A DNA stretch of 64,000 nt from Flavobacteriales bacterium (GTDB lineage Bacteria; Bacteroidota; Bacteroidia; UBA10329). The position numbers and the translations under genes were made by a program. Numbering within the stretch: the stretch's first letter is position 1; every line of letters starts with the position of its first letter. This document shows, in pieces, positions 14,030-30,781 of the stretch. Under the pieces are notes generated by a model, which had not been told where the DNA came from, made no database searches, and was given only the letters and a program-made list of their open reading frames with translations. Where the stretch lies: NCBI GenBank assembly GCA_018402015.1, contig JAGYJL010000002.1, positions 1 through 64,000 on the forward strand, read 5' to 3'.

Positions 14030-15406
14030 GTGTCACGGAGCAGAAGAAAATATCAAACTCTCATTTTTGGGCTGAAACTCAAACGTTCCATGCGTAAAAA
14101 TTGTCTCTCCGCAGATTAGCGGAGAAGTCTGGACTGTCTTATCTCTTATTTAAATGAGGTGAAAGGGAAAAGTATCCGAAAGCTGAGAAGATTTCTACGT
14201 TGGCCAACTCGCTTGATGTACTTGCCACGATGGCTTGTTTCGCTGGAAACTGGACAAGCAGCTTTCGCCTGTTGGGAGATATTGAACTCGCGTTTGTTGG
14301 AAGAACTTCCCTTGGAGTTGTTCGGTATTGATAAGGGCAAATTGATTGAGATTGTGCAAGTGCACCACTCAAGGTTTCGGCACCTGTAGTACCATCGCGC
14401 AGATTTCAGGCACATATAACTTAACGCAGGAGAATTTCTACTTGCCCATGTTGCGCTCGTATCAAGAGATGCACGAGAATTATTTTGAGGTATTGGGCAG
14501 GGAAGCGGCGCTTCAGGAAGAATATGAATTGCCTGAAACTGGAAGCATTTCATGGAAGTGTTGCAGAAATATTCTACTGAATAAATTCGGGTGCAACGTA
14601 GAGGAGAACGACCTCAGTGAGTTTCGGAATTGACACACATTCGTTCCGTTTTGTGAAGACGAAGAAGATTCTGATCGATGCCAAGATGGCCGAAACGAAG
14701 GCATTTCTCTATGCCCAAAGGAAATCGGCTACCAGTTTTGGAGATGAGCGGAGGCGCGCCTTGATGACGCCTTGGCCGCGTGCCACGGCTGATGGCGTGC
14801 TGAACAACAGTCGCGCAAGTTATTTTGCTGGAGCGCTTCTCATTTCACCTGAAGAGTTGGCAAAGCTGGAAGGCTTTTCGCCCAACCGAAATGGGACGAT
14901 AAAGGTTTGCTGAATATTTGGAAACGTATAATAGTTCTCCTGAGATGTTCGTGCTGCGACTCATTAATATCATTCCAAAATACTTTGGTTTGAGCGGTAT
15001 GTTCTTCATGCGTTTTCGATGTAAGAGCAACGAAAGCGGGACGTTGAAGAAGCAGTTGCACCTCTCGCGAACGCGCAATTAAAGAAGAAAATCACTTTGC
15101 GCGAAGTATTGCCGCATGGGCGGATGAGACGGTACCAGCAGCCTCGGAAAAAACGCCAAAGGCGCATTGCCATCGTTGCTGACCGAAAATCAACGCCAAA
15201 GCTTTTTGGCGTGGCGTTGGGCCGACCGATGAAACGGAACCCGAATGCCAGTTTGAGCGTGATGATGGTTTTGAGAACGCGGCATTTGCCAAGAAAGTTG
15301 GATTGCTGACGATGCATCCATTGGAACAACCGTGATGGAAATTGATGGCAGTGAACTGCAACGCGAAGAGGAATTCCGAAATATCAAAACTGCGATGAAG
15401 CGCTGA
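14030..15406 (+). CDS. XRE-family regulator with ImmA/IrrE-type domain (RamB/ScfR-like), frame broken
   Basis: Joining frames gives an N-terminal HTH (FGLKLKRSMR, LSADLAEKSGLSYLNE, KGKSIRKAEKISTLANSLDV), then NSRLLEELPLELFGIDKGKL. Next come an IrrE/DUF955-like stretch (ENFYLPMLRSYQEMHENYFEV, TKKILIDAKMAETKAFLYA) and a DUF2083-like tail (SSPEMFVLRLINIIPKYFGL, GRPMKRNPNASLSV). This architecture is that of short-chain fatty acyl/acetate regulators such as RamB and ScfR, which control aceA/aceB in other phyla. Its divergent position 147 bp from aceB fits that role. The start (GTG 14030) and end are approximate. Confidence 0.7.
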
Positions 15407-15472
15407 TGAAGTCAAGCAACAGCAGTGAGCGAACTCACAAACTGAATCCACTGAACGTAGCATCTTTGCCGC

Positions 15473-16150
15473 ATGGCTACAGAGAGCAATCATTGACGTT
15501 ATTATTCCGCGTACAACGAGGAGCAATCCATCGGTTTGGTGTTGGATGAGATTCCCAAAGAATGGGTTCGGAATACGTGGTGGCGAACAATAGTCTGCGA
15601 CAGAACAGGTGAAGTTGCTGAGCTACCTGGAGCCAAAGTGGTGTTTCAACCAAATAAGGCTACGAAATGCATTAACTGACAATCGGAATTCATGTACCTT
15701 GGAAATAAAACCTGACATTATTGTATTTCTCGATGGTGACCATTCTGATTGCAGAGCAATTGCCAGAGGTTGTTAAACCTATTTTAGATAACGAAGGCTG
15801 ATATGGTCATCGGTTCTCGAGCATTAGGAAAGTCAGGCCGGAAGTCTCACCGCAACAGGTTTTGAGGTGGCTGTACGGTTTTACTTCCAGTTGTTCTACG
15901 GAGTGAAGTTCACTGACCTCGGCCCATTTCATTGCCATTCGGTACGAAAGGAGTCTCCTACAACTGAATATGGTTGACCGGAACTACGGTTGGACCGTGG
16001 AAATGCAGATCGAAAGCAGCCGTAGAAATTGCGATGCGTTGAAGTTCCAGTCGATTACCGGTCCGCATCGAAGTCAAAAGTCTCGGGCACGATAAAGGGA
16101 CGATTGGTGCAGGTTACAAGATCATTCTTACCCTTTTCAAATACCTTTGA
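15473..16150 (+). CDS. GT2 polyprenyl-phosphate sugar transferase (Dpm1/Ppm-like), frame broken
   Basis: Reassembled over three frames: IDVII..AYNEEQSIGLVLDEIPKEW, then VVANN, FLDGDHSD, a DMVIGSRALGKS block, GVKFTDLGPF, MVDRNYGWTVEMQI and FQ..YR..SKVSGTIKGTIGAGYKIILTLFKYL. These are the nucleotide-sugar binding, D-x-D (DGD) and C-terminal blocks of dolichyl-/undecaprenyl-phosphate glycosyltransferases. The product would be a membrane-associated lipid-linked sugar used by the polytopic transferases encoded downstream. The start is ATG 15473. It overlaps or abuts the next gene. Confidence 0.75.
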
Positions 16151-17769
16151 ATGATGGAAATGACCCCCTCCCCGCTACGCGGTACTCCCCTTTCAAGGGG
16201 AGAGTTGGTTCTTTGATAAGGCGTTTGAGGAGCCGCTTTAACTCCCCCTGGAAAGGAGGGGCTGGGGATGGTCAGTCAGCTCTTGCGATTCTCGGCTACG
16301 TTCTTCTGGTCCATTTTATATCGTTTTGTCTACTGGCGATTCTGGTTTACAGTTTGGCGCAGGGCATTTGACGATGCTGTCTCCGTGCGAAGCGAAAGGG
16401 AGAAAAAGAAACACGAATTGCCTGATGAGTTGCCATTCGTCACTGTTCAGTTACCTGTGTACAATGATTTGTATGTAGTGGAGCGATTAATCAGACGTGT
16501 GGCGCAATTGGATTACATCCGTTGGATAACTGAGATTCAGAGTGTTGGATGACAGCACCGATGAGTCGGTGGAAGTGGCGGCCAATATCGTAGCTGAAGC
16601 TGCAGAGAAAACAGGCTTGGATATTCAGCATATTAGAAGAGATGAGCGGGTAGGTTTCAGAGGCTGGAGCGCTGTCGTACGGAATGAATCTGGCGAAGGT
16701 GAATTCATTGCCATTTTTGATGCTGATTTTCTTCCTGAAGGATTTTTCTGATGAAGACCTTGCCGTATTTCCAGACGAGAAGATGGTTGGTGCAGACGAA
16801 ATGGAACATCTCAGCCGCGATTATAACTTGCTGACGCTTGCTTTCGATGGCCTTGGATGCGCATTTCACCATTGAGCAGCGTGGCCGGAATTCGAATGGC
16901 GATTTCATGAACTTCAATGGAACGGCAGGAGTTTGGAAGGACATGTATCGAACATCTGGCGGTTGGAGTGCCGATACGCTTTACTGAAGATGCTGATGCG
17001 AGCTATCGCGCGCAGCTTGCTGGTTGGAAGATGAAGTACTTGGAAGAGCAGACTTCGCCAGCGGAAATTCCTGCATTCATTCAGGCCATTCGTTCGCAGC
17101 AATACCGTTGGAACAGGGCGGGGCGGAAGTGGCTCGCAGAAATTTATGAATGTAATGAAGGCTGATCTGCCGCTGCACGTCAAGTTCCATGCACTGTTCA
17201 CCTGTTCCAGCACCAGCATTTTCATTTGCATTTTCCTTGCTGCTGTGATCGGCGTGCCGTTGCTCTATTTTATGGCCGAAACAGGTTTAGCAAGTGAACT
17301 GATGAAGTATGCGGCTGTGTTCTTCCTCCACAGTTTTTCTTCCTGTCCAGGATTCTTTGGACAACCATCCGTCAGAGGCACGCCAATGCGTGGAGTGCAA
17401 CAACTTGGTTCGTACTGTTTTTCCGATTTTTGAGTCTGTCCATGGGGCTTTTCGCACAATGCCATTGCGGTTTCGGAGGATACTTGGGCATCCGTTCGCC
17501 CTTCATCGAACTCCGAAGTACAATATTGTAGGGAAGAAGTCGCATGTGACTGACCAATAAATATGTTGTATCGCGGCCACCTTTTATCGTATTGTTTGAA
17601 GCACTTTTGGCGCTCTATTTCTTAGGCGCAATTATTTGGGCCATTCATGTTGGCTATTACGCGTTCATTCCGTTTCACGTGCTGCTGACCTTGGTTTCAC
17701 GGGCATTACACGTTTTACACCATTAAGCATAGTTTCTTAGAATCTAATGCTGCCGCGTTGGATACATAG
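16151..17769 (+). CDS. Membrane GT2 glycosyltransferase (cellulose synthase-like), frame broken
   Basis: Joined frames give an N-terminal TM helix (GYVLLVHFISFCLLAILVYSL), a GT2 core with PFVTVQLPVYND, VLDDSTDESVEVA, ERVGF and IFDADFLPE (the D-x-D), a QRG..S block, then QQYRWNRG and a run of C-terminal TM helices (FICIFLAAVIGVPLLYFMA, VLFEALLALYFLGAIIWAI). It resembles processive CesA/CsaB-like enzymes. The reading frame into the first helix is open through a GC-rich palindromic repeat at 16158-16280, which replaces or extends the N terminus. The stop TAG at 17767 overlaps the next start. Confidence 0.7.
16158..16280. repeat. GC-rich palindromic repeat, copy 1
   Basis: Two CCCC-rich blocks facing inverted relatives: CTCCCCTTTCAAGGGGAGAG at 16191-16210 is itself a hairpin, and AACTCCCCCTGGAAAGG..GGGGCTGGGGATGG is the far half. 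A frame shared with the downstream glycosyltransferase stays open across it. Related elements occur at 18390-18556, and such sequences are common in Bacteroidota genomes. Confidence 0.7.
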
Positions 17770-19216
17770 GTTGCTGATGTTTGCAGCCTTTCAGTGGCAT
17801 TTGGCATTTGCAGTCATGGCATTGACCGCTTCAATTCGTCTGCCGTGCTCTTGTCATTCGCTGGGCTTTGGTTGATTTTTCCTGATTCAGTGGGTGATCG
17901 TGAGATAAGTGGAGACGGATGATGTTACCGGAATGGTGTTCCGAGCGATTTACTTGTTGGTTTTCCCGAATTGTCTGATGATGTATCCCGATACATCTGG
18001 GATGGCATGTTGACGAATGGGGATTTCTCCGTACTCATGCTTCCGTCAGAATGGTCCGGACACAGGCTGAACAATTTTGGAAACATGCTGCATCAGCTCA
18101 ATTCACCGACTATTATTCTATCTATCCGCCTGTTTTGCAATCGGTATTCGCGTTTAGTGTGTGGCTGGGTAATGGCCCAGTGCTTTCTTCCATTATTGTT
18201 CTTCGGGTGTTAGTGTTGCTAGCGAGTTTGGCTCGATGGTTCTCATCTGGAAGCTTTTAAGCGTGGAAGATGGCAGGCGAACCTGATGTTTATGCCTTGA
18301 ATCCGCTGGTGATCGTTTGAGTTTGCTGGGAATCTGCATGGAGAGGTCTTTATGGTTTTCTTCTTGCTACTGAGTTTGTGGTTGGCCTCCCCCAACCCCT
18401 CCAAGGAGGGAGAAAGAACCCCTCTGCCTTCGGTATCTCCCCAAGGGAGAAAAGTGCCCCACCTGACCCCTCCCCCGAAAGGGAGGGAGCTGAGGTGCTT
18501 CGGGCCAGCCTTTGATTGCTATAAAGCTCCCCTCATGGAAAGGAGGGGCTGAGGAAGGTCTCGTTCTGTCTGCCATTGCCTTTGGTTTGCGAGCGTTGGG
18601 ACAAGCTTTTGCCTATCATTTTCCCTTCCGTTCTACATCAAGCGATTAGGTTGGTTCAGGACCGCGATTTTGGCACAGTTGCGATTCTTACAGTCGCGCT
18701 GCAACATGTTCCATTTGGACGCCCGATACGCTTCAGAATACGTTTTCCTCACTCAGCTCTATTTCGCCAATTTCGAGTTCAATGCGAGTTTCTTTTATAT
18801 CATTCGGGAAGTTGGATTCTGGTATAAGGGCTACAATATTATTGGCGTGACGGCTGTTTGGCTACCGCGTTTGGTTGCTCTTTTATTCTTCTCATTGCAC
18901 TACTGGTTAAGGACAAAGAAGTGTCTGGACTTCCGAAGTTGATGCTCTTTCTTATGGTTCCTTTATTATGCATTTGCCACTACAGTGAATCCGTGGTACG
19001 TGGCCGTGTTGGCGACTTTCCTTCCATTTACCAAGTATCGGTTTTGCGTTGCTGTGGTTGATGCTCGGTTCCACTTTCGTATCAGGCATTCAGGAAACAG
19101 AACCTTTTCGAGAGAATATGTGGCTGATCGCTTTGGAATATGTGCCTGTTTATGCGTGGTTGCTGTTTGAGTTGAATGTGTTGCTTGAGGTTGGAACGAA
19201 AGTGGGCATTGCGTAG
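17747..19216 (+). CDS. DUF2029/GT87-like polyprenyl-phosphate mannosyltransferase, interrupted by a repeat and frame-broken
   Basis: A polytopic membrane protein beginning MLPRWIHRLLMFAAFQWHLA. The marker FPELSDDVSRYIWDGML is typical of DUF2029/GT-C enzymes, with the catalytic-type Asp in a DD pair after helix 1. Later blocks include DVYALNPLVI, EFAGNLHGE and FFLLLSLWLAS; then, after the 165-bp repeat at 18390, GLVLSAIAFGLSVGT, PFYIKRLGWF, and a C terminus VPVYAWLLFELNVLLEV. It probably uses the lipid-linked sugar made by the gene at 15473. The start overlaps the upstream gene by 23 bp. Frames are broken in at least five places. Confidence 0.65.
18390..18556. repeat. GC-rich palindromic repeat, copy 2, inside a coding sequence
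   Basis: CCTCCCCCAACCCCTCC at the left and AAAGGAGGGGCTGAGG at the right are inverted partners, with further GGGAGA/TCTCCC pairs between them. Flanking protein homology (LLSLWLA on the left, GLVLSAIAFGL on the right) is contiguous in relatives of the interrupted transferase, so this is an insertion. The left frame stays open through to 18552. Confidence 0.7.
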
Positions 19217-19223
19217 GGCAGGA

Positions 19224-19775
19224 GTGAAGCGGAAACGGTTGTTGCCGTTGCTGAATGAGAAGGATAGAGGGTCCTTCGCTGCGCTCCAGAGGAAGACAAA
19301 GTGGGAGTTTGCAGGTGTTGGAAGTAGGAGCAGGAAATGGGGCACTGGTAAAGCTTCTAAATAATGAAGGACTGCAGCTTTCGGCTTTGGATATCGAGAA
19401 TAAAAGCCTGTTTGAGGATGTGGCTGTTGAGGTTTATGACGGGGAGAAGTTCCCGTTTTACGGATAAAAGCAGTTCGATGTGTGCCAGTTGGTCGCGATG
19501 CCATCCTTGACCAATGCCGAGGGCGACTCATTCGCGAAGCAAAGCGTGTTTTCAAACCGCGTTATCATTATGGAGGACATTTATGAGGGGGCTGTTTCAA
19601 GAGTACCTTGCCCGGTTTATTAGTTTGGTGAACTGGGGATTCTTTGGTCATCCACATACAGACAAACGGATGCGTGGAGAATTATTCGGAGGAATGGGCT
19701 GGTGGTGGAGAAGGTGGAGTATTATCGGTTTCTGCTGATGCTTTAAGCAGGTGACATTATGTTTTGAGGGGGCTA
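19224..19775 (+). CDS. Class I SAM-dependent methyltransferase, frame broken
   Basis: Motif I is clear (VLEVGAGNGALVKLL). It is followed by LSALDIENKS (acidic end of strand 2), YDGEKFPF and KQFDVCQLV (motif IV region), EAKRV..RVIIMEDIYEG, and a FGHPHTD/ELFGGMGLVVEKVEYY C-terminal part, all once frames are joined. The substrate is unknown; the operon context suggests a glycan or lipid. The start (GTG 19224) and end are approximate. About 50 bp of repeat-like sequence splits LLPLLNEKD from RVLEVGAGNG. Confidence 0.6.
19262..19313. repeat. Short repeat-like insert in the methyltransferase gene
   Basis: The segment GGTCCTTCGCTGCGCTCC..GGAAGACAAAGTGGGAG resembles a dispersed Bacteroidota repeat (a relative of the GGTTCCTCGGAATGACAAA type seen at 24551). 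Removing it restores the expected NEKDRVLEVGAG junction of the methyltransferase. Confidence 0.4.
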
Positions 19776-19838
19776 GAGAAGACAGGAGTTAGAAGCTGGA
19801 ATAATGGAGCTTATGTTGGAACTTGAGGCTTGCGACTC

Positions 19839-20245
19839 TCAAGAGATCGGTTCGCGGTTGCATTCTCCGATAAGGGCCACGGCAACCTGCAATAAGGCCT
19901 AACGATATTGTAGGTGAATTCGAGCATGGCCCAATATGGCGATGTGATGTTGAAATCGCCATAGTAGCTGGTTACGGTAAGCCCGGTGAGGATTCCCATA
20001 AGGAAACCGAATTTAAGACCTTTGGTAAGTGGTTTCCGCCTTGTAAAGCATGTGGTACACGTACACGAATACGATGGCGCGCATGGCGTGGGTAATGAGG
20101 AAATACGCCACGGGCATTTGCATGCGCTCTATGCCGGAATACCCCTCGTTATACCGTCTCGAAATTACTTCGTGCCATAGCACACCTGCAGGGTGATGAT
20201 CGACCAAGCAGCTACCGTAGCCAATATGAAGCGAGCCATGTTCAT
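19839..20245 (-). CDS. Small membrane protein (about 135 residues), unknown function
   Basis: Joining two to three frames gives MNMARFILATVAAWSII, MQMPVAYFLITHAMRAIVFVYVYHML, and LKFGFLMGILTGLTVTSYYGDFNITSP with WAMLEFTYNIVRPL. This makes about four transmembrane segments in a layout like small DUF1761-type membrane proteins, though I am not sure of the family. It stands alone, and the frame breaks are like those of its neighbours. Confidence 0.45.
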
Positions 20246-20294
20246 TAGGGGATGGCAAGTTTAATGATTCTTAGCCTGGTCATGCTGAAGGGTT

Positions 20295-20708
20295 TTACAA
20301 TTTAATGATGCCTTTTGGCGAAGTGTTTTCTGGTACTGGTGTTAGTCCGTTTCCTGATTGGAACGTAGCAATCATAAGACCGTACTCTCGGTTGGTACAG
20401 CATGAAACAGCCTGCTGTAAGCACCGTTTCCGTTGGGAAGTTGGCAGATGGTGGTTCCGTAGATATCGTCATTGCCTGTTATCTGTCGCGTCCATTCCTC
20501 GTTGCCATCAGCATCTACCTTAAGTAGGTAACCTGTGCGCTGGAATGTGGAGGTCTCATCAGCGGTCGCCAATGGTTATGACGCTGTGGTCGGGAGGATG
20601 ACCATCTCAGCGCGTTCTTCTGCCGATGTGGTTCCGTACGTGCGTTGGAAGAGACTCTGTGAGAGGATAAAGGGGAAAAAGAAAAATGAAAAACGTGAGG
20701 AGGTGCAT
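20295..20708 (-). pseudogene. N-terminal fragment of a secreted protein
   Basis: Begins MHLLTFFIFLFPLYPLT, a signal peptide. It is followed by SLFQRTYGTTSAEERAEMV, ADETSTFQRTGYLLKVDADGNEEW and DDIYGTTICQLPNGN, the repeat style found in T9SS-secreted proteins that carry 'GYLLKTDSNGNEIW' modules. It stops at 20295 without any sorting domain, so it is probably a truncated gene. The frame is broken at least twice. Confidence 0.4.
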
Positions 20709-21122
20709 GGGGTTGCTGTTTTGGGGTAATGACGAATATACGAATGGCGCGTGTTGCACGCTGCGGTGAATGATTCATCGTGTTACTATAAGGTGCTATC
20801 ATTCAGTTGAATGCTGACGATAGAAATACGAAAACGGACGAAAAGAATATATATGCTGTCTGGAAAGATAGTGTACGATGAAGGTAATAAATAAGACGTC
20901 ATTTCTAAAGAATATATTGATTGAAAGAATATAGTAGATGACCAAAATAACTGGCTAACCGCCTGTAGCCATTATTGAACAGACCAAGGTAGTGAGAAGC
21001 TAACGAAGAGGATGTAAAAATGACTATTAGAAGGAGGAAGAGACTGAAAATAATTATTTCAGAGCGTTTGAGCGGAGAGATGGTCGGTCTGGAGAGTGTG
21101 GTCATTTAAAACACGTGAAGCC
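20709..21122. other. No gene recognised
   Basis: About 410 bp with stop codons in all frames and no homology that I recognise. It is A+T-richer than the flanks and holds no clear repeat or terminator. Confidence 0.5.
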
Positions 21123-21546
21123 ATGTTGCATTCTGAGATTGGAAGGTTGATAAGAAAAGGAGCCTGAAAGTCCGAAAGTCTTTCTGCGCAAGCGGATTAC
21201 GGACCGCGAGTGCGAACGCTGACACAATCCGCTGGACTTGTGCAGGTGCGGGATAGCATGATGCAACGGCTATGTGAGGCGATAGGATGCACACCGAATG
21301 ACATTTTACGGTGGCGTGGGGCGGCCCAGCCATTTACAGGCGCTGAATATGATGATGAAGGTGGAGAATGCGGCAGACCTGCTTGCCGACCTTAAGCAGC
21401 CGGAGTTGGAGCTTCTGTTGAAAAAGGCCGAGCAACTGGTGCAGGATGCGTCTAAATTGAGCATTGGTGGTGAGGACGACTTTTCTGAACGTAGCGCGTA
21501 TTGCGGGCAACGACAGCAACTTCGTCGAAGTTTATCTGTGCAATAA
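21123..21546 (+). CDS. Small HTH (Cro/C1-type) DNA-binding protein, frame broken
   Basis: ATG 21123 starts MLHSEIGRLIRKRSLK. After frame joining come LTQSAGLVQVRDSMMQRLCEAIGCTPNDILRW, the last part being the hallmark of short Bacteroidota HTH_26/XRE regulators (LCEA..CTPNDLL), and a tail ADLLADLKQPELELLLKKAEQLV. It probably binds DNA as a dimer. Its target is unknown; it lies at the left edge of the repeat/toxin region, so it could be a cassette regulator or a stray gene. Confidence 0.5.
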
Positions 21547-21803
21547 AGGTTGCAGTTGGTGAGTAAAGCTTTCAGTTCGGAACGGAAGTCGGTTCGGGTG
21601 GATATGTTGGCGCGATTGTGTGTTTTGCTTCGGTGCTTACCGAACGACCTTTATGATTGAGTACTGCGCATCATTTGAACGGATTGCGAAAAGTAACGGG
21701 GATCGGAAGTGATGACGGAACATCTGGCATTGCTTCCTTGTTGAGATCGGGGAGGGTTCTGAGGAGTTGAAGAGAACGGGACAATGATGCTGATGGATCT
21801 GGG

Positions 21804-21926
21804 TTTCTCTCAAGTCCGTGGAAGTGCGCTAGGTGTATTTTGGGTTTTTGTTCTAAAGATACGTTCGAAACTTATCGTGTTATGTTCCACACAAAGAAGT
21901 CCTTCGGAATTCTTGCGCGTGCCATT
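21804..21926 (+). repeat. Interspersed hairpin repeat, copy A (degenerate)
   Basis: Starts TTTCTCTCAAGTCCGTGG and includes AAGTGCGCTAGGTGTATTT, a degenerate stem (GATACGTT/AACTTATC) and TCCTTCGGAATTCTTGCGCG. It lacks the left 'GTGCTCAG' end. The most diverged of four copies, all in the same orientation. Confidence 0.8.
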
Positions 21927-22011
21927 GGAACACTTAGCCGGGCGAGGGAGTTTTGCCGAACACAAATGATTAGACTTCCTCACAACTATTCAAAGATGCC
22001 TGTTTCAGTTT

Positions 22012-22495
22012 CTATTTTTCGATCGTTTTATTTTCCCTGAATTTAACTTGCTCAACCGGTTGAGTATCTGGGCAAATAGTTTCCCGGTTCCCTAACGGCT
22101 CCCCATATCTCATTATTCCGCATTTTGTAGCAGTTTTCTCTTCAGCTAATTCACAATATCTTCCTCTATAGTGAACTAAGTATTCTTGGAGGACGCTAAG
22201 GCGAAGATTTCCCAAAGATCTTCAGTGAAAGAGGAATCATTACGAAAGAATCAGCGTAGCCTCTCAACAGAAGTCACGGTATTATCTGAGCTGTAACGCA
22301 CAAGAAGCAGGCGGTTGCCATAGAAATCCACTTACCAGCCGCTGCCCAGTCACTCCCTGAAATTCAAACGATTCTGACTCGCTCTTGGTCCAGTCTCTGA
22401 AAATCTTTCAGCAGATCTTATTTACAATTCTAAAGACTGTGATTACGCCAACGAAACACCTCCAGAAAAAACAGAACGAAAAATACTTTAAGCAT
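22012..22495 (-). CDS. Candidate immunity protein / hypothetical, frame broken
   Basis: Starts at ATG 22495, 19 bp after the stop of the Rhs fragment. The N terminus is hydrophobic (MLKVFFVLFFLEV). The rest is recoverable only by joining frames (SSDNTVTSVERL, FFRNDSSFTEDLWEIFA) and ends in the open stretch KCGIMRYGEPLGNRETICPD...ENKTIEK. I recognise no family. The position directly downstream of an Rhs toxin-like tip is where immunity genes sit, so that role is inferred from context only. Confidence 0.35.
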
Positions 22496-22514
22496 AAAAC
22501 AAAAATATAATTAC

Positions 22515-23425
22515 CTAATAAGGTTCGGTTCGTAATGGGCCAAGAGCGGTGCCGTCAGCATAGTGTAGCCTGATTCCACTGTACTATATTACTCGGAATA
22601 CTGTTTCCACTACGCGTAGAACCATCAGCTGTAGGATTAAAGTACAATTCGTACTGGCCAGCAAGTCCGATGCCTCGTTGATTAAAATTCCGGAGCTGTC
22701 GCTACTCAACTAAAAACATTCGGATTGGCATTCCGTATTGATCGGCTTCACTATTGCGTGGCAGCAGAGCTGCAGTTCCGTTGAGGATTAAAACTCGAGT
22801 AGCATTCTGCTGGAGCTGTACCAGCAGCCACCATTGCCATTGTCAATAGCGTTCTGAACAGACACATCAATATTAGTCAGGTCCCACGGCAGACAGTAAG
22901 CCTCGGCCATTACCCGAACTCCATAATCTTGGTTAAACTGGTTTCTAATTGTCGCTGCGAAACTGACCCAGAACACTCCTTGTGCGGGAGTTACCGGTCA
23001 TGCTTGATCGTGACAACATCTTGATGAGCCTGTTTATTCAAGAATACTGATTCAAGACACTTTGTATCCGATTAGTCATTCCGTTTGCTGTTCCTTGTTG
23101 AGTACCGTTCTCAATTTCAACAGTATTCGTTAAGTTACCATTTGGATTTCTCTGCTTGTCTATGTCAACCTGATATGTCACACCATCAGCTCTTTTATCT
23201 TGGTAGCTAACATCCTCTAATCCTTCAAGCTCCACTCTGTGTATCAATTTGTTGCCACTAAAGCTATATGGACTATAGTGAGGATACTTTTTGTTAAAGG
23301 GTCAACTGCAAAGAACCTATAACCCTCGTGGGTCGTGCATCCTGTACTTGTAATTGACGCTATTGCCGTTCCCTTGCAACTCATCATCCCTTCTCCTGCC
23401 CTTGGAAGCCGAATCTGTAGCCAGT
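22515..23425 (-). pseudogene. Rhs C-terminal cassette: truncated core plus toxin-like tip
   Basis: The first ~55 residues are the Rhs repeat-associated core end: TGYRFGFQGQE, GNSVNYKYRMHDPR.GRFFAVDPL, YPHYSPYSFSGN, VELEGLEDV. Everything upstream of TGYRFGF is missing, because repeat copy B begins at the next base. The variable tip that follows is about 240 residues over several frames (GVTYQVDIDKQRNPNGN, NRIQSVLNQYS, GVFWVSFAATIRNQFNQDYGV, YELYFNPTADGS), ending at TAG 22515. No toxin fold is recognised. Rhs tips of this kind act in contact-dependent killing, but this copy lacks a delivery portion and looks like an orphan cassette. Confidence 0.6.
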
Positions 23426-23558
23426 GTGCTCAGAGGAGGAAAAAGGACGAAAACCCAGCATGGCAGAAAAGTAGGTTTTTGTTCTCAAAGTTTTCTCTCA
23501 AGTCCGTGGAAGTGCGCTAGGTGTACTTTGGGTTTTGTGCTGAAGATCAGTTCGGATA
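23426..23558 (+). repeat. Interspersed hairpin repeat, copy B (right end missing)
   Basis: Begins GTGCTCAGAGGAGGAAAAAGG and continues through GTTTTCTCTCAAGTCCGTGG and AAGTGCGCTAGGTG to GATCAGTTCGGA, where similarity stops midway through the hairpin. The left terminus abuts the broken Rhs core; the right side ends 22 bp from the hepT stop. Confidence 0.9.
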
Positions 23559-23579
23559 CGGCATCTGGTGAAAAACAAA

Positions 23580-23921
23580 TCACCTTTTTAACGCTCCGAT
23601 CTCAGCTTTGAGTATAGGAAGGTCCTTTATCAGAATTCTCCACAAGGCGGCAGGGTCGATGGAATCGTAGGCGTGAACGATCAGATTACGCAGGCCTATT
23701 ATCTGGTCGGCACTTGAAATGGGAAGCTCCTTGTCCAGTTTTCTGATCTGTGAGACCGCCTCACCAATGATCATCAGGTCGCGTTCTACAGCCCTTACAG
23801 AAATGAAATTGCTACTGAAATCGTTGAAATCCCTTCGGTGATGTTCCAGTATCTTCTCCAGTTCTTCAATGATGGACTCCACGTCCATCAACAGTTTCGG
23901 AATTCGCTTATGCGGCAGCAT
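23580..23921 (-). CDS. hepT: HepT-like toxin (DUF86 ribonuclease/nucleotidyl-acceptor)
   Basis: 113 residues from ATG 23921 (or 12 codons later). Mostly helical, and contains RNLIVHAY, the R-x4-H-x-Y active motif of HepT/HEPN toxins, near residue 85. HepT is an RNase-type toxin kept inactive by its partner MntA, which adds AMP units to the HepT tyrosine of this motif. The start overlaps the mntA stop by 14 bp. This gene is intact despite lying in the frameshift-rich block. Confidence 0.85.
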   Translation of the reverse strand: MLPHKRIPKLLMDVESIIEELEKILEHHRRDFNDFSSNFISVRAVERDLMIIGEAVSQIRKLDKELPISSADQIIGLRNLIVHAYDSIDPAALWRILIKDLPILKAEIGALKR

Positions 23922-24222
23922 ACAACGGTACTTTGGTGCGATCCACTTCCTGTTTGAAGATCGGGTTTCTGATAACGTTGTACGAAACAAGATCGACCCG
24001 TCTGTTCAATAGCATTTCCAACGAACGGAGTACTTCAAAAAAGGCATCACCACGCTCCAATGGGCTCAGTTCTTCTTTGAATACCACGGCAAGGTCCACA
24101 TCGCTATCTTCTGGCAGGTTATGCTGCAAAGCAGAACCGAACAGGAACAATGCTTGCACACCATTCTTCCGGCAGATGGCCTCTGCGCAGCTTTTTGGTT
24201 CTGTTTGCGGCAGCGTGTTCAT
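23908..24222 (-). CDS. mntA: MntA-like nucleotidyltransferase antitoxin
   Basis: 104 residues. FLFGSALQHNLPEDSDVDLAV carries the GSx(10)DxD minimal nucleotidyltransferase motif of MntA, the antitoxin that modifies HepT. It is followed by RRVDLVSYNVI and KVPLYA, as usual in the family. mntA precedes hepT with a short overlap, the standard arrangement for translational coupling. The pair is flanked by repeat copies B and C. Confidence 0.85.
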   Translation of the reverse strand: MNTLPQTEPKSCAEAICRKNGVQALFLFGSALQHNLPEDSDVDLAVVFKEELSPLERGDAFFEVLRSLEMLLNRRVDLVSYNVIRNPIFKQEVDRTKVPLYAAA

Positions 24223-24329
24223 TCCCGATCGTTATCCAGTTCAAACTTACGAAACAAAGGTATTCTATCTACTGCTGCGAAGCCGCTGCCTCTGTAGGGC
24301 TCAGGGTGCGGACTGAGTAAACAAGGCAG

Positions 24330-24516
24330 GTGCTCAGAGGAGGAAAAAGGACGAAAACCCAACATGGCATAAATATCGGTTTTTGTTCTCAATGTTTTCT
24401 CTCAAGTCCGTGGAAGTGCGCTAGGTAGTTTTCGGGTTTTGTGCTTAGATCAGTTCGGAAACTGATCGTACTTAGTTCCACACAAGAAATCCTTCGGAAT
24501 TCTTGCGCGAGCATGG
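24330..24516 (+). repeat. Interspersed hairpin repeat, copy C (full length)
   Basis: The most complete copy, about 187 bp, from TGCTCAGAGGAGGAAAAAGG to GCGCGAGCATGG. The ends carry TGCTC/GAGCA as 5-bp inverted termini. Internally there is a perfect hairpin, GATCAGTT-CGGA-AACTGATC, at 24448-24467 and a second TTCG-capped stem around 24483-24503. Confidence 0.9.
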
Positions 24517-24572
24517 GGAAGGAAGCGTCTCTCTTGATGTGAGATTCCTTGTTCCTCGGAATGACAAAATTG

Positions 24573-24704
24573 GTGCTCAGGTTTTCTCTCAAGTCCGTGG
24601 AAGTGCGCTCAGTGTATTTTGGGTTTTGTTCTTAAGATCAGTTACAAACTGATCGTACTTAATTCCACACAAGAGATCCTTCGGAACTCTTGCGCGAGCA
24701 TGGG
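24573..24704 (+). repeat. Interspersed hairpin repeat, copy D (internal deletion)
   Basis: Has both ends (GTGCTCAG and GCGCGAGCATGG) but lacks the ~57-bp segment between GTGCTCAG and GTTTTCTCTC found in copies B and C. Its hairpin is GATCAGTT-ACA-AACTGATC, with the same stem and a changed loop. It lies 56 bp after copy C; the spacer contains GTTCCTCGGAATGACAAAA, another dispersed repeat. Confidence 0.9.
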
Positions 24705-24898
24705 GGTCATGTACGTATACTTCTGGCATCCTTCCTGCCGCTTCGCCAAGAACTATCAGGTTACATGATAAACGGCATCGCGCGTTCTGCCATCGGAAAC
24801 AAAGCCTTCAAAACTAAGCCCATCGCGTAAAGAAGCAGTATTTTTCTGGACCGCCTCTACCATATCTTGCAGAATGATGTAGGCAGCCGTACCGACAT
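24705..24898 (-). pseudogene. Second hepT-like gene, truncated at repeat copy D
   Basis: After frame joining, the residues ILQDMVEAVQKI, LSFEGFVSDGRTRDAVYH and LIVLGEAAGRMPE match the first half of a HepT/DUF86 protein. Homology ends at MPE, 1-3 codons before copy D, so the R-x4-H-x-Y active motif is absent. Start near ATG 24898. The nucleotidyltransferase partner precedes it. Confidence 0.55.
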
Positions 24899-25180
24899 TG
24901 ACCACCTCTTCTTTAATGATGCTCCCAGTAGTGTGGCTTGAGTGCACGCCTGCATACCAGATGCGTCATGACCCAGCAATTGCTTCAATTCTTGTTGGAG
25001 GTCAAAGAATTCCCAGCCCATCTCGCCATCAAATCAATGAGAATATCCACATCGCTGGTCTGTGCATTGAAATCGGACCGCACTACAGACCCGAACAAGG
25101 CAAGATAGGAGATAGGATAACGCTTTCTCAGAGCCGGAGACCTCCTGATAGTTTGTGCTGATGTCCTTAAACGATTCCAC
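24890..25180 (-). CDS. Second MntA-like nucleotidyltransferase, frame broken
   Basis: Contains LALFGSVVRSDFNAQTSDVDILIDF, a GSx(n)DxD nucleotidyltransferase motif, then EFFDLQQELKQLLGH and a tail ending IKEEVVNVGT, as in MntA/MNT-family antitoxins. The start is near GTG 25180. It overlaps the truncated hepT-like gene and is therefore an antitoxin left with a dead or missing toxin. Confidence 0.6.
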
Positions 25181-25361
25181 AACACAAATATAAGCGAATG
25201 AGGGCGGGTAGCTTTGGGTTTGGTGGCTAATCTGATGATGGGCACACGTTACGCAAAAAGTTGAATGCGCGCCAGCACGGAGTCAAACTGCAATTTTTGG
25301 CAACATTTTGTTTAGAAAGAGTGCAGCAGGACCGTAAATTGACTGATCGGAACCAAATTCA

Positions 25362-27500
25362 ATGATAAGGTCAATACTCACATTTCTTTTCAGCTTTTAT
25401 TTCTGGTAGAAGCCACAGACCGAACATGTTGTGGGTGGTGAGATACATTGGGAGTGCATTGATAATGGCCCCGATGCTGGGAAGATGGTTTTCTATGTAA
25501 AACTGTTCCACGATTGCTCAGTACAGAATACCATTGTTTCGACAAATGGTCAAATTTATCGTTATTACGAATCACCTGTTTTGTGGGTGTGCAGATACCC
25601 TTGACCCTTGTTTATAAAAGCAGATGCTAACTGATGCGTTATACAGTGTTCCTTGCAGTTTGGCAAGTGGGGGCGACCTGTCTTTCCGTAGTACCTGTTT
25701 AAGACGAATGGAAATAGCCATTACTGGTGTTCCGCCTACAAACGGTTACACAGTTGTTTACAGTCGGTGTTGTAGAAATGAGGTCGACAATCTGACCGAT
25801 GCCAGTAATTCTGAGGGTTTATTATACCTGGCTACCATGTTTCCATTTGAAAGTAGACAGATGTATCCGTGTTATGACTCCAGCCCTCAATTCGTTGAGA
25901 CACTTGCTTCTGTTGGTTGCTCAGGAAGTGAACTACGATATTATTCTGCGTTGGGGGTTGATCGGGATTTGATTCACTCCAGTTATGTGTTCGTTCCTGC
26001 TTTGGGCGAAATGGAATACCTATCCCGTATAGTGCCGGATATACATTCGATGTTCGTTGCCGGGTCCGATGTTAAATCGGTTATGATGCAGTGGAACGGT
26101 ATCCAGCGGATGCGTTGAATACGATAGTCCGCCCAATTTTCAAGGTAGGTGGTCGATTGTCACAGCCGTTGACGCATGGCGTTGTGGGGTTCGCATTTCG
26201 AGTGATCGGCTATTCGCTCATCATATTGCCTTGTAGCACGGAGAATGCTGCTCTGTAGTTAGTAATCCTATTTGGACGAGCCTATTAGCGCCAGTGGTTT
26301 TGAGGTAAGTGTGCCGGCGGGTGATGCGATGAGTTTTTCTTTGAACGCCATGAATTCGAGCTCATTGGGTTGCTGCCTCAGGAAATGACGTTTGAGGCTG
26401 TTGGAAGTCAATTTGGAAGTGGATTCACCGATGAACAGTGGATGTGGATTGTTCCTTGTGCGACCCTTGATGACCTCCGCCCGTTTCGGTAGGTGACTCA
26501 ACCGTGCTGAGTACGGTCTTCAACTGGCAGACCTCGTGTAACCATGTTATACAGAATGCTTGATTATGACCACTTCCAGTACCTACCATTTTCATTTTTC
26601 AAATTCAATGATGATTTCTGTCCGGCAAATGGCATTAGAATAGTAAACATGGCGGTGACCGTTCTAGGTGATTCATATAGTGTCAAGTCCCATGTCCGTT
26701 GTGTCAGTTTGGATTCGACCGGCAATGTTACGCTGGCATGGGAGCCTACTTTGGATACGAATGCTGTTCCCTCTTTTTGTGGAATATATCATTGAGCACG
26801 GGACAGCTGAATCGGGGCCTTTGTGGAGGTGGGAACCGTAACAACTATTGAAACAGGCTTTGTTCATGATGTTGGACATCTAATACCTCCCAGTCAGGTA
26901 GGGTGAATTACTACCGGGTGAGATTACAAGGTCTGGATGTAATGATTCGGCTGTTGCTGCCGCAGAAAGGATGCGTATCAGTATTCATCTTACGATGGTC
27001 AATACAGGAACCAGCGCAGAACTGAGCTAGATGCGATATCCGACCCGTTGCCGTCACTTCCAATTCCGTTTTATCACATTTATCGTGAATACCCTGTGAA
27101 TATGGAGCCTGATGGAAGCTCCCTGCCTCGGCATTGAGTTATTCGGATTCTGTGGTTTGGGTGGTGAGCAGGTGAATTATCGCGTTGAGCTGACGAATGA
27201 ACTGCCCTGTGTATCGGTTTCAAATATTGTGGGGGATGTTTGGATGGTGTCAGTGATTTTCATCCAGTCGGTTCAGTTAAGTTTGCAGATCCAAGTGAAG
27301 GAACTTTCAACCTGAGTTCAGACATGGATTATGCTTGGGTATAGATTTACTTGATATTTCAGGCAGAATAATCGATGAGCATCGTTTCTCATCAGCAACA
27401 AAAGCTATCCAATCTGATTTACATTGCAAGACGTTGGGACATATCTACTTCTGGTAGAAACTGAAGTAAATTTGCAGTGCAGAAGGTTGTGATTCATTGA
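25362..27500 (+). CDS. T9SS-secreted surface protein with type A sorting domain, frame broken
   Basis: ATG 25362 opens a signal peptide (MIRSILTFLFSFYFW). The N-terminal block EHVVGGEIHWECID and the later YTVVYSRCCRN are signatures of large T9SS adhesin-like proteins. Next come a DAWRCGVRIS block, a LPQEMTFEAVGSQFG region, and fibronectin-like segments (VSLDSTGNVTLAWEPTLDTNAV). A type A sorting domain (DPSEGTFNLSS, DLLDISGRIIDEHRF, VGTYLLLVETE..FAVQKVVIH) ends at TGA 27498-27500. About 710 residues in all, spread over many frames. Probably exported by the gldKLMN machinery and anchored to or released from the surface. Confidence 0.65.
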
Positions 27501-28588
27501 TCGGCCCTCCCCCAGTAAGCCTTTCACTACTTTGAATTGGTTGAAGAACTCGCCAACGAATACGCGGCCAATGCTGTAGGTGGGAATGGCGAGATCATTA
27601 CCAGCTATCTTAGGCCACGTTTCCGGCCATGAGGATGACAAGGAAGATCTCAATGGATGGGCTTTGACGCTCTGCGAAGTAGATAAGCGGTTGAAGTACA
27701 ATATTGTCCAATAGTTGGGCTACAGCATATACGATGGCCATTTGCCCCGTTAGGCTGGTATATCTGTGAGGTTAAGCCCCTGCCGAGTTGGTGCTTGATA
27801 CCAATGGTGATACCTACGCCTGCGCCAATTATACAGGACCTACGTACGGAATGACATTGAACGGCCCCGCAATGAATCCGATGAGTAAGGCGTTGTCGAT
27901 ACCCGCAGTACTGAGCCCTGCGGAAACGATGGTCATTACGATAGCCCACTTCACCATAATGACACCAATGAAGTAACGCGTAAGCGGTTCTTTGCTTTTG
28001 TGCAGCACCTTGCCAATGCGCACTTCATACTCATCAGGTATGAGCGTCATGATGCGTGTTCTTGAACGATTAAGCTGGTCCTTTAGGAAGAAGAAGGTGA
28101 TGAAGGTGATAGCGAAGAAGGCAATGAAGATATCGCCTGTTGACCGAGCGCATATTGGCCACGCTGTGCCTAGGCCGAAATATCGAAGAGATGGGTGAGC
28201 AGGTTCTTCAGTTCGGTCTCGAGCACTATGGGTGCTTCGGTAAGTTTGGTTGATGTAGTCCTGTGCTATTTGGATGGGGCCCGAATGTTGCTTATAACGT
28301 CTTCGGTATTAACGTTGGAGAGTTTGCGCGCCTCGTCTGCCACCATGGGAACAAAGGCGCTGATGTTCCACTCCGAAGAAACTCAAGCCCAAAGATGGTA
28401 AGGGATGCAGCCGCTGCCCTGCATTGTTTTTCCCTTGTATTGGAGTTTGAGCAGAAAACGGATGAGCGGTTCGCCAGCAGTTGAGATGACACCTGCTACC
28501 AGAATGCTTAGGCGATGATGGTGTGGAGTACCATGCCATGGCCAGTAGAGCGTGATGGCGGGTACGTAGATCAGTTTCTGTTTTTCAT
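27494..28588 (-). CDS. AI-2E family transporter (PerM-like permease), frame broken
   Basis: The C-terminal half is clear: LIPDEYEVRIGKVLHKSKEPLTRYFIG, MVKWAIVMTIVSAGLS, LLIGFIAGPFNVIPYVGPVIGAGVG, then LAIPTYSIGRVFVGEFF. These are the conserved GxxxxIPYVGP and terminal blocks of the AI-2E/PerM family. The N terminus (ATG 28588) gives two helices, a coiled region (VADEARKLSNVNTEDVIS) and TFFFLKD. About eight membrane segments are expected. Substrates of the family vary and none is implied here. It converges on the adhesin gene with an overlap of about 7 bp. Confidence 0.7.
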
Positions 28589-28613
28589 GTTGTACGAATA
28601 TACGTAGGAGACA

Positions 28614-28644
28614 AAAAGAAGCAGCCCCTTGTGGAGTTGCTTCC
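28614..28644 (-). terminator. Terminator after ftsZ (end of the dcw cluster)
   Basis: On the minus strand, GAAGCAACTCC and GGGGCTGCTTC form a near-perfect stem around a short loop and are followed by TTTTTGT. It lies about 60 bp downstream of the ftsZ stop. Confidence 0.7.
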
Positions 28645-28702: not shown

Positions 28703-30781
28703 TTATTTGTCGCTGAGCCCACCACGTCTGTTACCATTCTCGTCTGTTTCTTCACCAGTTACCTCAAATTTGGTAACCGTGCTTTCTGAAGAATGAGGCA
28801 TGTTATCAAATTGACGTTGCACACGTCTTTTGAGCCGGAACGTTCTCCAATTCAGCCAGTTGGTTGGTGAGTTGAATCTGCGGTTCATTCCTTTCAAGCG
28901 CTCTAAACGCTCCAACTGCTTGCGCTGCATTTCTTCCGTATCGAAACTATCGGTAGGCTCGTTGCGGGTAAGGAGTTGTGGTTCGTTGGTAAGACGCGCG
29001 GTTTCGGCCTTTGTTGAAGAAGCCTCTGGGGTTTCGTCATACAGGTTGAACATGGTAACGTTCTCCTCCTTTGCTACAGGTGTTTCCTTCTTTACCTCAA
29101 ACTCGAATTCGGTAGGAGTTTCGGTAGTAACGATGTTGTCCGTCTTCGGTTCTTCATCTTTCGGTTCGCTAAAGGCTCTGAACGTTTCTGTTTCTTCTTC
29201 CGCTACAGGCGTGTTGGCAATAGGCTGTTTGAAAAGGCTGAACGGCATTAACGGTGCTGTTTCTTCCTCTTCGGTTTCTGTCTCTGCCTCGATGTTGGAC
29301 ACTTCGTCTTCTTCGTGGTGGAATGTTTCCTCTTCTTCGAAAACAACCATTTCGGTTTCGGTGGTTATTCCGAAATCATCGTCATACTCATCATCGTCTT
29401 CCTCATTGTACATTGGAAGTTCCTCGCCTTCCTTCACCCCGATCATCTCTGGAGCTTCGGCATTGATGATGGCATTGAGTTCCTCGTCATTCTCATCCAC
29501 TTTGTATGCCATGAGGGTGGAGGCGGTTGGTATTTCCTCTTCTTCATCATCTAGCAGCAAGGTGTGCTTGATAAGCGGCTCTTCTTTTGGAGCTTGGAAT
29601 GTTGGCGTTTCGTTGATCGGTGTATTGTCGAAGTCGTTGTTCAGGTCTGTTGCCGGACGAAGTCGCTCATTCATCAACTTAGGACGTGCAGTAAGACCAG
29701 AAGGAATGGAGGCCTTCGGTTCTGTCTTAGGTGCAGCTGTTGGTGCTTGACGGTGCGTGTCGAGTACGTGTCTTACCACATTCTCTTTGCCTGTTACTTT
29801 CTCCAACTTTTCTCCAGAGAAGCCGGTAGCAATAACAGTAAGCGTAAGTCGATCGCCAAGGTCTTCATCGGTGCCGTTACCCCAAATAACATCGGCATCC
29901 ATACCTGCTTCTTCTTGAATATAATCGGTGATCTCGGCCACTTCGTCCATGGTAACCTCATCAGAGCCAGAACTGATATAAAGGAGGATGTTGCTGGCTC
30001 CGTAGATGTTGTTGTCGTTAAGTAGCGGAGAGGCCAAAGCCTGCTCCACAGCCTTAATGGCGCGATCCGGACCTGAAGTTGTTGCAGAACCCATTATGGC
30101 CACGCCTGAGCTGGTCATTACGGTTCTAACATCTTCGAAATCCACGTTTACGTAACCTTCTACGGTAATGATCTCTGCAATACCCTTGGCAGCAATGGTC
30201 AATACGTCATCGGCCTGTCCGAAAGCTTCGCTGAGTTTCAGGTTTCCGTACATCTCACGCAGTTTATCGTTAGAGATGATGAGAACCGTATCAACGTGCT
30301 TTTTCAATTCTTCGAGACCGAGGTCTGCTTGCAGTTTACGTTTCTTGCCTTCGAAACCGAATGGAATGGTTACGATACCTACAGTGAGGATTCCAAGTTC
30401 GCGTGCTGCCTCTGCAATGACCGGGGCGGCACCTGTTCCCGTACCACCGCCCATTCCGGCAGTGATGAATACCATTTTGGTATCGTTGCAGAGTACGTCC
30501 TTGATGTCATCGAGGTTTTCGATGGCCGCATTACGGCCTACTTCGGCCTGTGCACCAGCGCCACGGCCTTCTGTGAGGCTCGATCCCAATGCGATCTTCT
30601 TTGGCACTGGGCTCATGTCGAGCGCCTGTTGATCTGTATTACAGACCACGAAGTCTACGCCTCTAATGCCTTGTTTGTACATGTGGTTGACAGCGTTTGA
30701 GCCGCCTCCACCAACTCCGATCACTTTAATGATCGAGCTTTCCTCTTTGGGGAGATTGAAATTCATCATGTCCTTAGCCAT
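28703..30781 (-). CDS. ftsZ: FtsZ, tubulin-like division GTPase
   Basis: 692 residues. The GTP-binding tubulin signature GGGTGTGAAP is at 111-120, with VGGGGSNAVNHM near residue 23. A GTPase/C-terminal domain of about 330 residues is followed by a long acidic linker (EEEE- and TETE-rich, about 350-620). The expected C-terminal tail motif (NQLAELENVPAY.RR) is present only in the +1 frame at about 28815-28860, where the annotated frame reads NWLNWRTFRLKRR. This is probably a pair of compensating indels. It forms the Z ring with FtsA, encoded immediately upstream. Confidence 0.95.
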   Translation of the reverse strand: MAKDMMNFNLPKEESSIIKVIGVGGGGSNAVNHMYKQGIRGVDFVVCNTDQQALDMSPVPKKIALGSSLTEGRGAGAQAEVGRNAAIENLDDIKDVLCNDTKMVFITAGMGGGTGTGAAPVIAEAARELGILTVGIVTIPFGFEGKKRKLQADLGLEELKKHVDTVLIISNDKLREMYGNLKLSEAFGQADDVLTIAAKGIAEIITVEGYVNVDFEDVRTVMTSSGVAIMGSATTSGPDRAIKAVEQALASPLLNDNNIYGASNILLYISSGSDEVTMDEVAEITDYIQEEAGMDADVIWGNGTDEDLGDRLTLTVIATGFSGEKLEKVTGKENVVRHVLDTHRQAPTAAPKTEPKASIPSGLTARPKLMNERLRPATDLNNDFDNTPINETPTFQAPKEEPLIKHTLLLDDEEEEIPTASTLMAYKVDENDEELNAIINAEAPEMIGVKEGEELPMYNEEDDDEYDDDFGITTETEMVVFEEEETFHHEEDEVSNIEAETETEEEETAPLMPFSLFKQPIANTPVAEEETETFRAFSEPKDEEPKTDNIVTTETPTEFEFEVKKETPVAKEENVTMFNLYDETPEASSTKAETARLTNEPQLLTRNEPTDSFDTEEMQRKQLERLERLKGMNRRFNSPTNWLNWRTFRLKRRVQRQFDNMPHSSESTVTKFEVTGEETDENGNRRGGLSDK

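What the first reader, a model, noticed from the sequence alone, without database searches (positions are those of the whole stretch)
21804..25180. A four-copy hairpin repeat separates an Rhs toxin fragment and two HepT/MntA modules like cassette borders
Copies A (21804), B (23426), C (24330) and D (24573) are all in one orientation. Between A and B lie the Rhs tip and its candidate immunity gene; between B and C an intact hepT-mntA pair; after D a second, broken pair. Copy B's left end (GTGCTCAG) starts at the base where Rhs homology stops, and copy D's right end lies 1-3 codons from where the second hepT homology stops. All the cassette genes point opposite to the repeats. Repeat-bounded modules loaded with toxins and antitoxins recall integron or other recombination-cassette arrays, but there is no integrase in view and the repeat is not a known attC. 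The nearby frameshift errors do not affect repeat identity.
Basis: partly seen in the sequence, partly recalled or inferred. Interest (0 to 1): 0.7.

Follow-up and report, generated by a model that had tools for sequence, protein, structure and literature searches.

The report
Repeat-spaced arrays of toxin–antitoxin modules
In two sister bacterial species of one genus, a modular DNA repeat (about 190 bases where complete) lies next to nearly every toxin–antitoxin pair or Rhs toxin tip in four gene clusters set between housekeeping genes, which looks like a cassette array built by recombination at shared spacers, although no integron-type recombinase or site was found with it.

Summary
The four copies are real, at the stated places and in one orientation. 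The repeat is a composite. A ~50-nt core occurs 16 times in all: 12 in three clusters of this genome and 4 in one cluster of the sister species G003; a class-wide pattern scan found it nowhere else (395 genomes). Cargo between copies is toxin–antitoxin pairs (MntA–HepT, ParE, DUF4258/MqsA-like) or Rhs tips; 12 of 14 gene-bearing intervals have profile or homology support. Genes always run opposite to the repeat; 12 of 16 cores lie 36–228 bp past a module's stop codon. Cargo proteins are mostly unrelated while cores are ~79% identical. Three of four clusters are absent from the orthologous gap of a relative. The right third (118–190) is a separate covarying double-hairpin element that flanks an IS200-type transposase gene in the genus. 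Copy ends are ragged, no attC core or adjacent recombinase was found, and no strain pair shows single-cassette gain or loss. Best reading: toxin-module islands built by recombination through shared spacers; it works like an integron or rAID array but membership is not shown.

The parts
21804..21930 (+). Repeat copy A (core plus 3' double-hairpin module; no left module)
22012..23419 (-). Rhs C-terminal tip fragment (Rhs homology ~23215-23419, starting at YRFGFQG) followed by a frameshifted stretch where an immunity gene would be expected; immunity gene not identified
   Evidence: no family match
23426..23560 (+). Repeat copy B (left module plus core; 3' module nearly absent)
   Evidence: reverse strand supplies MLGFRPFSSSEHTG before YRFGF
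23580..23990 (-). hepT1, HepT-like ribonuclease toxin
   Evidence: PF01934, E 7.8e-19
23908..24222 (-). mntA1, MntA-type nucleotidyltransferase antitoxin
   Evidence: PF18765 and PF01909; PADLOC PDC-S09
24284..24322 (+). Extra shared module, ~60 nt upstream of mntA1; the same ~35-nt stretch lies upstream of three unrelated TA operons in C1, C123 and G003:C36
24330..24520 (+). Repeat copy C (fullest copy: left module 1-64, core 65-113, 3' double-hairpin 118-190)
24515..24580 (+). Alternative left module (GGAAGCGTCTC...GGAATGACAAAATTGGTGCTC) fused to copy D; the same fusion occurs in C123 and in G003:C36
24573..24706 (+). Repeat copy D (core plus 3' module)
24706..24878 (-). hepT2 remnant, cut off after about 63 of 112 aa at the repeat junction
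   Evidence: intact homologue L041:6859-7197
24882..25180 (-). mntA2 remnant, frameshifted
   Evidence: intact homologue L041:6573-6878
25206..25282 (+). Partial fifth copy E (end of core plus an alternative 3' module), right border of the cluster
   Evidence: read directly; aligned

Best explanation
The window carries one of four islands in which unrelated toxin-antitoxin pairs and orphan Rhs toxin tips are strung head to tail and separated by a composite spacer repeat. Shown: the core of the spacer is confined to these islands; it usually follows a module's stop codon; all modules have one orientation relative to it; islands occupy gaps between housekeeping genes that are short in a relative; cargo differs while spacers are alike. 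Inferred: modules were brought in, shuffled and lost by recombination through the shared spacer modules (homologous or homology-assisted), and the toxin modules then hold the island in place by addiction. The 3' part of the spacer is a separate hairpin element probably spread by an IS200-like (RAYT-type) transposase of the genus, which landed in or was captured by the spacers. Orphan Rhs tips use an ATG or TTG provided by the reverse strand of the spacer, ahead of a fixed Rhs breakpoint at YRFGFNG.
For: Core confined to the islands: 12 of 12 pattern hits among 395 class genomes, 16 cores in all with looser matching on the held loci. Cargo: MntA-HepT, ParE (one just under cut-off), DUF4258 with an MqsA-like partner, Rhs tips. 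Distances of 36-228 bp to a stop codon for 12 of 16 cores. MntA1/MntA2 31% and HepT1/HepT2 29% identical, most ParE pairs unrelated; cores 79% identical on average, 0.789 within and 0.785 between islands, so not local tandem duplication. Near-empty sites: accC and its convergent neighbour abut in G003 and G004 but are ~7.1 kb apart in G000; carbonic-anhydrase-like gene and murI 59 bp apart in G003 but 2.7 kb in G000; purE and its neighbour ~60 bp apart in G000 while G003 has an island there. The mntA2-hepT2 module is shared by G000:C112 and G003:C36 with different neighbours. A ~35-nt shared stretch upstream of four unrelated TA operons. RAYT link and covariation of the 3' module.
Against: No pair of strains shows gain or loss of one module with clean junctions. 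Repeat ends are ragged and at least one junction cuts a gene (hepT2). One 31-bp direct duplication flanks the C1 island, which homologous recombination alone does not explain; it is absent at C123 and C112. Two of 14 intervals have no recognised TA family. Only two sister species carry the islands. The window stretch is frameshift-rich, so some 'broken' genes may be assembly errors.
Confidence: 0.5

Rival explanations
1. Integron-like or rAID-like system: the core is a site for a tyrosine recombinase acting in trans (for example the IntI-resembling recombinase at G000:C57 and G003:C45), which captures single modules.
For: Integron-like layout (stop codon, site, next module, one orientation). 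TA cassettes occur in sedentary chromosomal integrons (PMC11551772); rAID arrays have a tyrosine recombinase, co-oriented short genes and conserved intergenic motifs (PMC12247911). The best IntI-like recombinases of the genus are in exactly the two core-bearing genomes. A 31-bp duplication at the C1 island recalls att sites.
Against: The recombinases score below the integron cut-off, lie far from the islands and sit beside other DNA. The core has no evident attC-like stem and no consistent RYYYAAC/GTTRRRY pair (read directly). Spacer borders are ragged. G000 and G003 look like sisters, so co-occurrence is weak evidence.
Confidence: 0.15
2. Passive accretion: toxin modules and dispersed repeats both pile up in insertion-tolerant gaps between convergent genes; the repeats are ordinary mobile intergenic elements with no role in module exchange.
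For: The 3' module is a dispersed, transposase-linked element in most genus genomes. The same murI gap in G008 holds a different pile-up with an Rhs tip, a DDE transposase and other repeats, and without this core. Repeat units sit on different sides of the same module.
Against: The core occurs only beside toxin modules, in fixed orientation and usually close to the stop codon; random hopping would put copies elsewhere. A shared stretch also precedes four unrelated TA operons.
Confidence: 0.3
3. Array grown by local tandem duplication followed by divergence of the modules.
For: Head-to-tail layout; two Rhs tips next to each other in C1.
Against: Modules belong to different families or are under about 31% identical while spacers are ~79% identical, and cores are no closer within than between islands.
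Confidence: 0.05

Closest known systems
Sedentary chromosomal integrons with toxin-antitoxin cassettes (e.g. the V. cholerae superintegron)
   Same: One-orientation array of small modules, each followed by a repeat; TA modules present and shown to stabilise the array (PMC11551772)
   Different: No integron integrase in the islands, no attC-like core, ragged repeats, several islands in different chromosomal gaps, cargo almost only toxin modules
rAID (recombinase-associated acquired interbacterial defence) clusters of Bacteroidales
   Same: Co-oriented short genes for interbacterial conflict with conserved intergenic motifs (PMC12247911)
   Different: Here toxin-antitoxin pairs and Rhs tips, not orphan immunity genes; no recombinase in the islands
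Orphan rhs-CT/rhsI and cdiA-CT/cdiI modules
   Same: Truncated Rhs tips followed by a putative immunity gene, with a fixed breakpoint (PMC3150448)
   Different: Not downstream of a full-length rhs gene; mixed with type II-like and HepT TA pairs; start codon supplied by the repeat
RAYT-linked REP elements / REPINs
   Same: The 3' module is a covarying hairpin element in inverted copies on both sides of Y1_Tnp genes in G007 and G008; RAYT genes are described as always flanked by inverted REPs (PMC2817692)
   Different: ~70-100 nt with two hairpins, low copy number, no GT(A/G)G head; only part of the composite repeat
V. cholerae T6SS immunity-gene arrays
   Same: Arrays of conflict genes thought to grow by modular insertion and homologous recombination (PMC5361080)
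   Different: No shared spacer repeat reported; tied to T6SS clusters

Membership tests
Integron | Integron integrase (TIGR02249 above cut-off) next to the array | tested here: not met
   No genome of the genus passes the cut-off; best hits lie on other contigs
Integron | attC sites: R''/R' core boxes (RYYYAAC/GTTRRRY) in a palindromic stem at every cassette border | tested here: not met
   Read by eye on the aligned copies: no consistent pair of boxes and no palindromic core; no attC covariance model was run
Integron | Cassettes gained or lost singly with precise borders | not testable with these tools
   One genome per species; only whole-island differences seen
rAID cluster | Tyrosine recombinase at the head of the cluster | tested here: not met
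   ORF lists of the islands show none
[quoted passage not shown]
rAID cluster | Cargo is orphan immunity genes | tested here: not met
   Cargo is TA pairs and Rhs tips
Orphan rhs-CT/immunity module | Rhs core end plus variable tip without the upstream Rhs repeats, followed by an immunity gene | tested here: inconclusive
   Rhs_assc_core positions 13-76 in C1 and G003 tips; the following genes have no immunity-family match; the window's own tip is frameshifted
HepT/MntA toxin-antitoxin system | HepT-like and MntA-type nucleotidyltransferase genes adjacent | tested here: met
   activity not tested
RAYT-linked REP element (3' module only) | Inverted copies on both sides of a Y1_Tnp gene | tested here: met
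   G008 (L046) and G007 (L055); single copy or remnants in G000, G002, G003, G004
RAYT-linked REP element (3' module only) | GT(A/G)G head and high copy number | tested here: not met
   No such head in the alignment; only a handful of copies per genome at the thresholds used

The most novel reading that the evidence does not exclude
The core is the recombination site of an undescribed cassette-capture system specialised for toxin-antitoxin and Rhs-tip modules, served in trans by a recombinase elsewhere in the genome, with several islands per chromosome.
Probability: 0.12. Interest if true: 0.8.

Novelty: new variant of a known kind. Interest (0 to 1): 0.5.

Why it matters
How arrays of toxin–antitoxin and orphan Rhs modules are assembled outside integrons and secretion loci is an open question. 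A spacer found only beside such modules, in four islands with near-empty sites in relatives, gives a concrete, sequence-defined case to test repeat-mediated exchange of toxin modules. It also warns that a repeat read as one unit may be a composite with a hitchhiking transposase-linked element.

Tried and rejected
Rfam search: no family (best E 0.98). Plasmid and phage records: no match to the repeat. Core pattern in GTDB 220 contigs and IMG/VR: three single short hits in unrelated organisms, about what chance allows, and none (weak). Integron integrase as driver: below cut-off and remote. Tandem 288-nt repeats beside the G003 recombinase are unrelated to this repeat. A direct duplication at each island edge: found only at C1. 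A first hand-placed structure for the 3' module was off register and was replaced by the correct one. Reading the first 64 nt as Rhs coding sequence was considered and dropped: orphan tips in G000, G003 and G008 all start at YRFGFNG, with unrelated upstream sequence in G008.

Full report
Observation. The four copies exist as described and are far beyond chance. The window is contig C112 of a 3.08-Mb, 83% complete draft genome. FtsZ lies at 28703–30781, and Por_Secre_tail and similar proteins in sister genomes point to Bacteroidota (inference). The stretch of roughly 15–28.6 kb is rich in frameshifts: for example a transporter-like gene at 27504–28631 that is intact in five relatives is split here.

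Where else the repeat is. In this genome the repeat occurs in two further clusters, C1:45344–50883 and C123:15457–18040, with isolated 3' pieces in C57 and C154. Among 99 relatives the full repeat is found only in the sister species G003, contig C36; other genus members have only the 3' piece, with one short match outside the genus. A 28-base core pattern with up to three mismatches hits 10 places in G000 and 2 in G003 and none in the other genomes of a 395-genome class sample. Looser matching on the held loci gives 16 cores, four in each of the four clusters.

Architecture. Aligned copies show a ~50-nt core (TCTCAAGTCCGTGGAAGTGCGCTAGGTGTATTTTGGGTTTTGTG) with interchangeable partners. On the left there is either a module whose reverse strand carries an ATG or TTG used by Rhs tips, or a different module ending …AAAATTGGTGCTC. 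On the right there is either a ~70-nt double-hairpin element or another sequence (…GCACGGGCACGCGTTACGCGAAAAGC…). A further ~35-nt shared stretch lies about 35–70 nt upstream of four unrelated TA operons. Copy ends are ragged.

The 3' hairpin module is a separate element. Twenty-four copies from the genus give 97.5% standard pairs over 15 pairs, with 7 pairs changed on both sides; no shuffle reached the observed covariation score or percentage paired, and sliding the register destroys the signal. Inverted copies flank a Y1_Tnp (IS200-like) gene in G008 and G007; copies also lie beside that gene in G004 and beside its remnants in G000, G002 and G003. This resembles RAYT-linked REPs (PMC2817692), but the GT(A/G)G head and high copy number are not met.

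Cargo. Window: Rhs tip; MntA–HepT; nothing; a second MntA–HepT, broken. C1: a ParE pair; a 76-aa gene with DUF2283; two Rhs tips, each followed by a small gene; a second ParE pair. C123: DUF4258 with a weak MqsA-like partner; a 91-aa gene without a family match; a ParE gene. G003:C36: MntA–HepT, Rhs tip, ParE pair, with a MazF pair just outside. Twelve of 14 gene-bearing intervals thus have at least weak profile or homology support as toxin modules; one ParE match and the MqsA match are under the curated cut-off. All run opposite to the repeat, and 12 of 16 cores lie 36–228 bp past a module's stop codon.

Comparison of sites. accC and its convergent neighbour abut or nearly abut in G003, G004 and G008 but are 7.1 kb apart in G000:C1, where a 31-bp direct duplication (one mismatch) of the gene end flanks the insert. 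The carbonic-anhydrase-like gene and murI are 59 bp apart in G003 but 2.7 kb in G000. The purE gap is ~60 bp in G000, holds only a MazF pair in G004 and G008, and an island in G003. The murI gap in G008 holds an Rhs tip and other genes with different repeats, so such gaps also attract unrelated insertions.

Mechanism. Cargo proteins are unrelated or under about 31% identical, while cores are 79% identical and equally so within and between islands: the spacers have been shared between islands, not copied in place with their genes. The mntA2–hepT2 module is 86% identical between G000:C112 and G003:C36 but has different neighbours, and one left-module-plus-core unit lies on its other side. This fits exchange through shared spacer pieces better than a precise site-specific reaction. 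It does not prove exchange: accretion in tolerant gaps remains a serious rival, and no strain comparison was possible. An integron-type or rAID-type system works alike in layout, but its defining recombinase, site and cargo were tested and not met; the IntI-like recombinases at C57 and in G003:C45 stay an untested candidate. That TA modules would stabilise such an array is inference from integron work (PMC11551772).

Verdict.

Noticed in passing
L016:9304-9334 and 16417-16447 (G000:C1): 31-bp direct duplication of a gene's 3' end (TTTCCGCTCCAACCAACCATTATAATTYACC) on both sides of the 7.1-kb C1 island; relatives have one copy, so it marks the insertion borders.
   Followed up: partly
L063:3-1265 (G000:C57) and L107:6895-8175 (G003:C45): Tyrosine recombinases with an N-terminal extension, the closest to integron integrases in the genus, both at or near contig ends; the G003 one follows three to four 288-nt tandem repeats.
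   Followed up: partly
L016:15400-16371, L048:8388-8888, L063:1279-1953, L098:5651-6595: Small proteins without family matches, two of them sharing a C-terminal region (...STVNI...NDP...), each near insertions, recombinases or palindromic repeats; possibly another cargo type.
   Followed up: no
L098:2205-8134 (G008:C5): The murI gap in G008 holds an Rhs tip starting at YRFGFNG, a DDE transposase, a GIY-YIG gene and a separate ~150-nt repeat: an insertion hot spot with different repeats.
   Followed up: partly
window 15000-28600: Dense frameshifts in genes intact in relatives, ending just before ftsZ; probably a low-quality assembly stretch.
   Followed up: partly
L046:8171-9073 and L055:8231-9038: Double-hairpin element with strong covariation flanking an IS200-like transposase gene in inverted copies: a REP-like element without the usual GTRG head.
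   Followed up: yes
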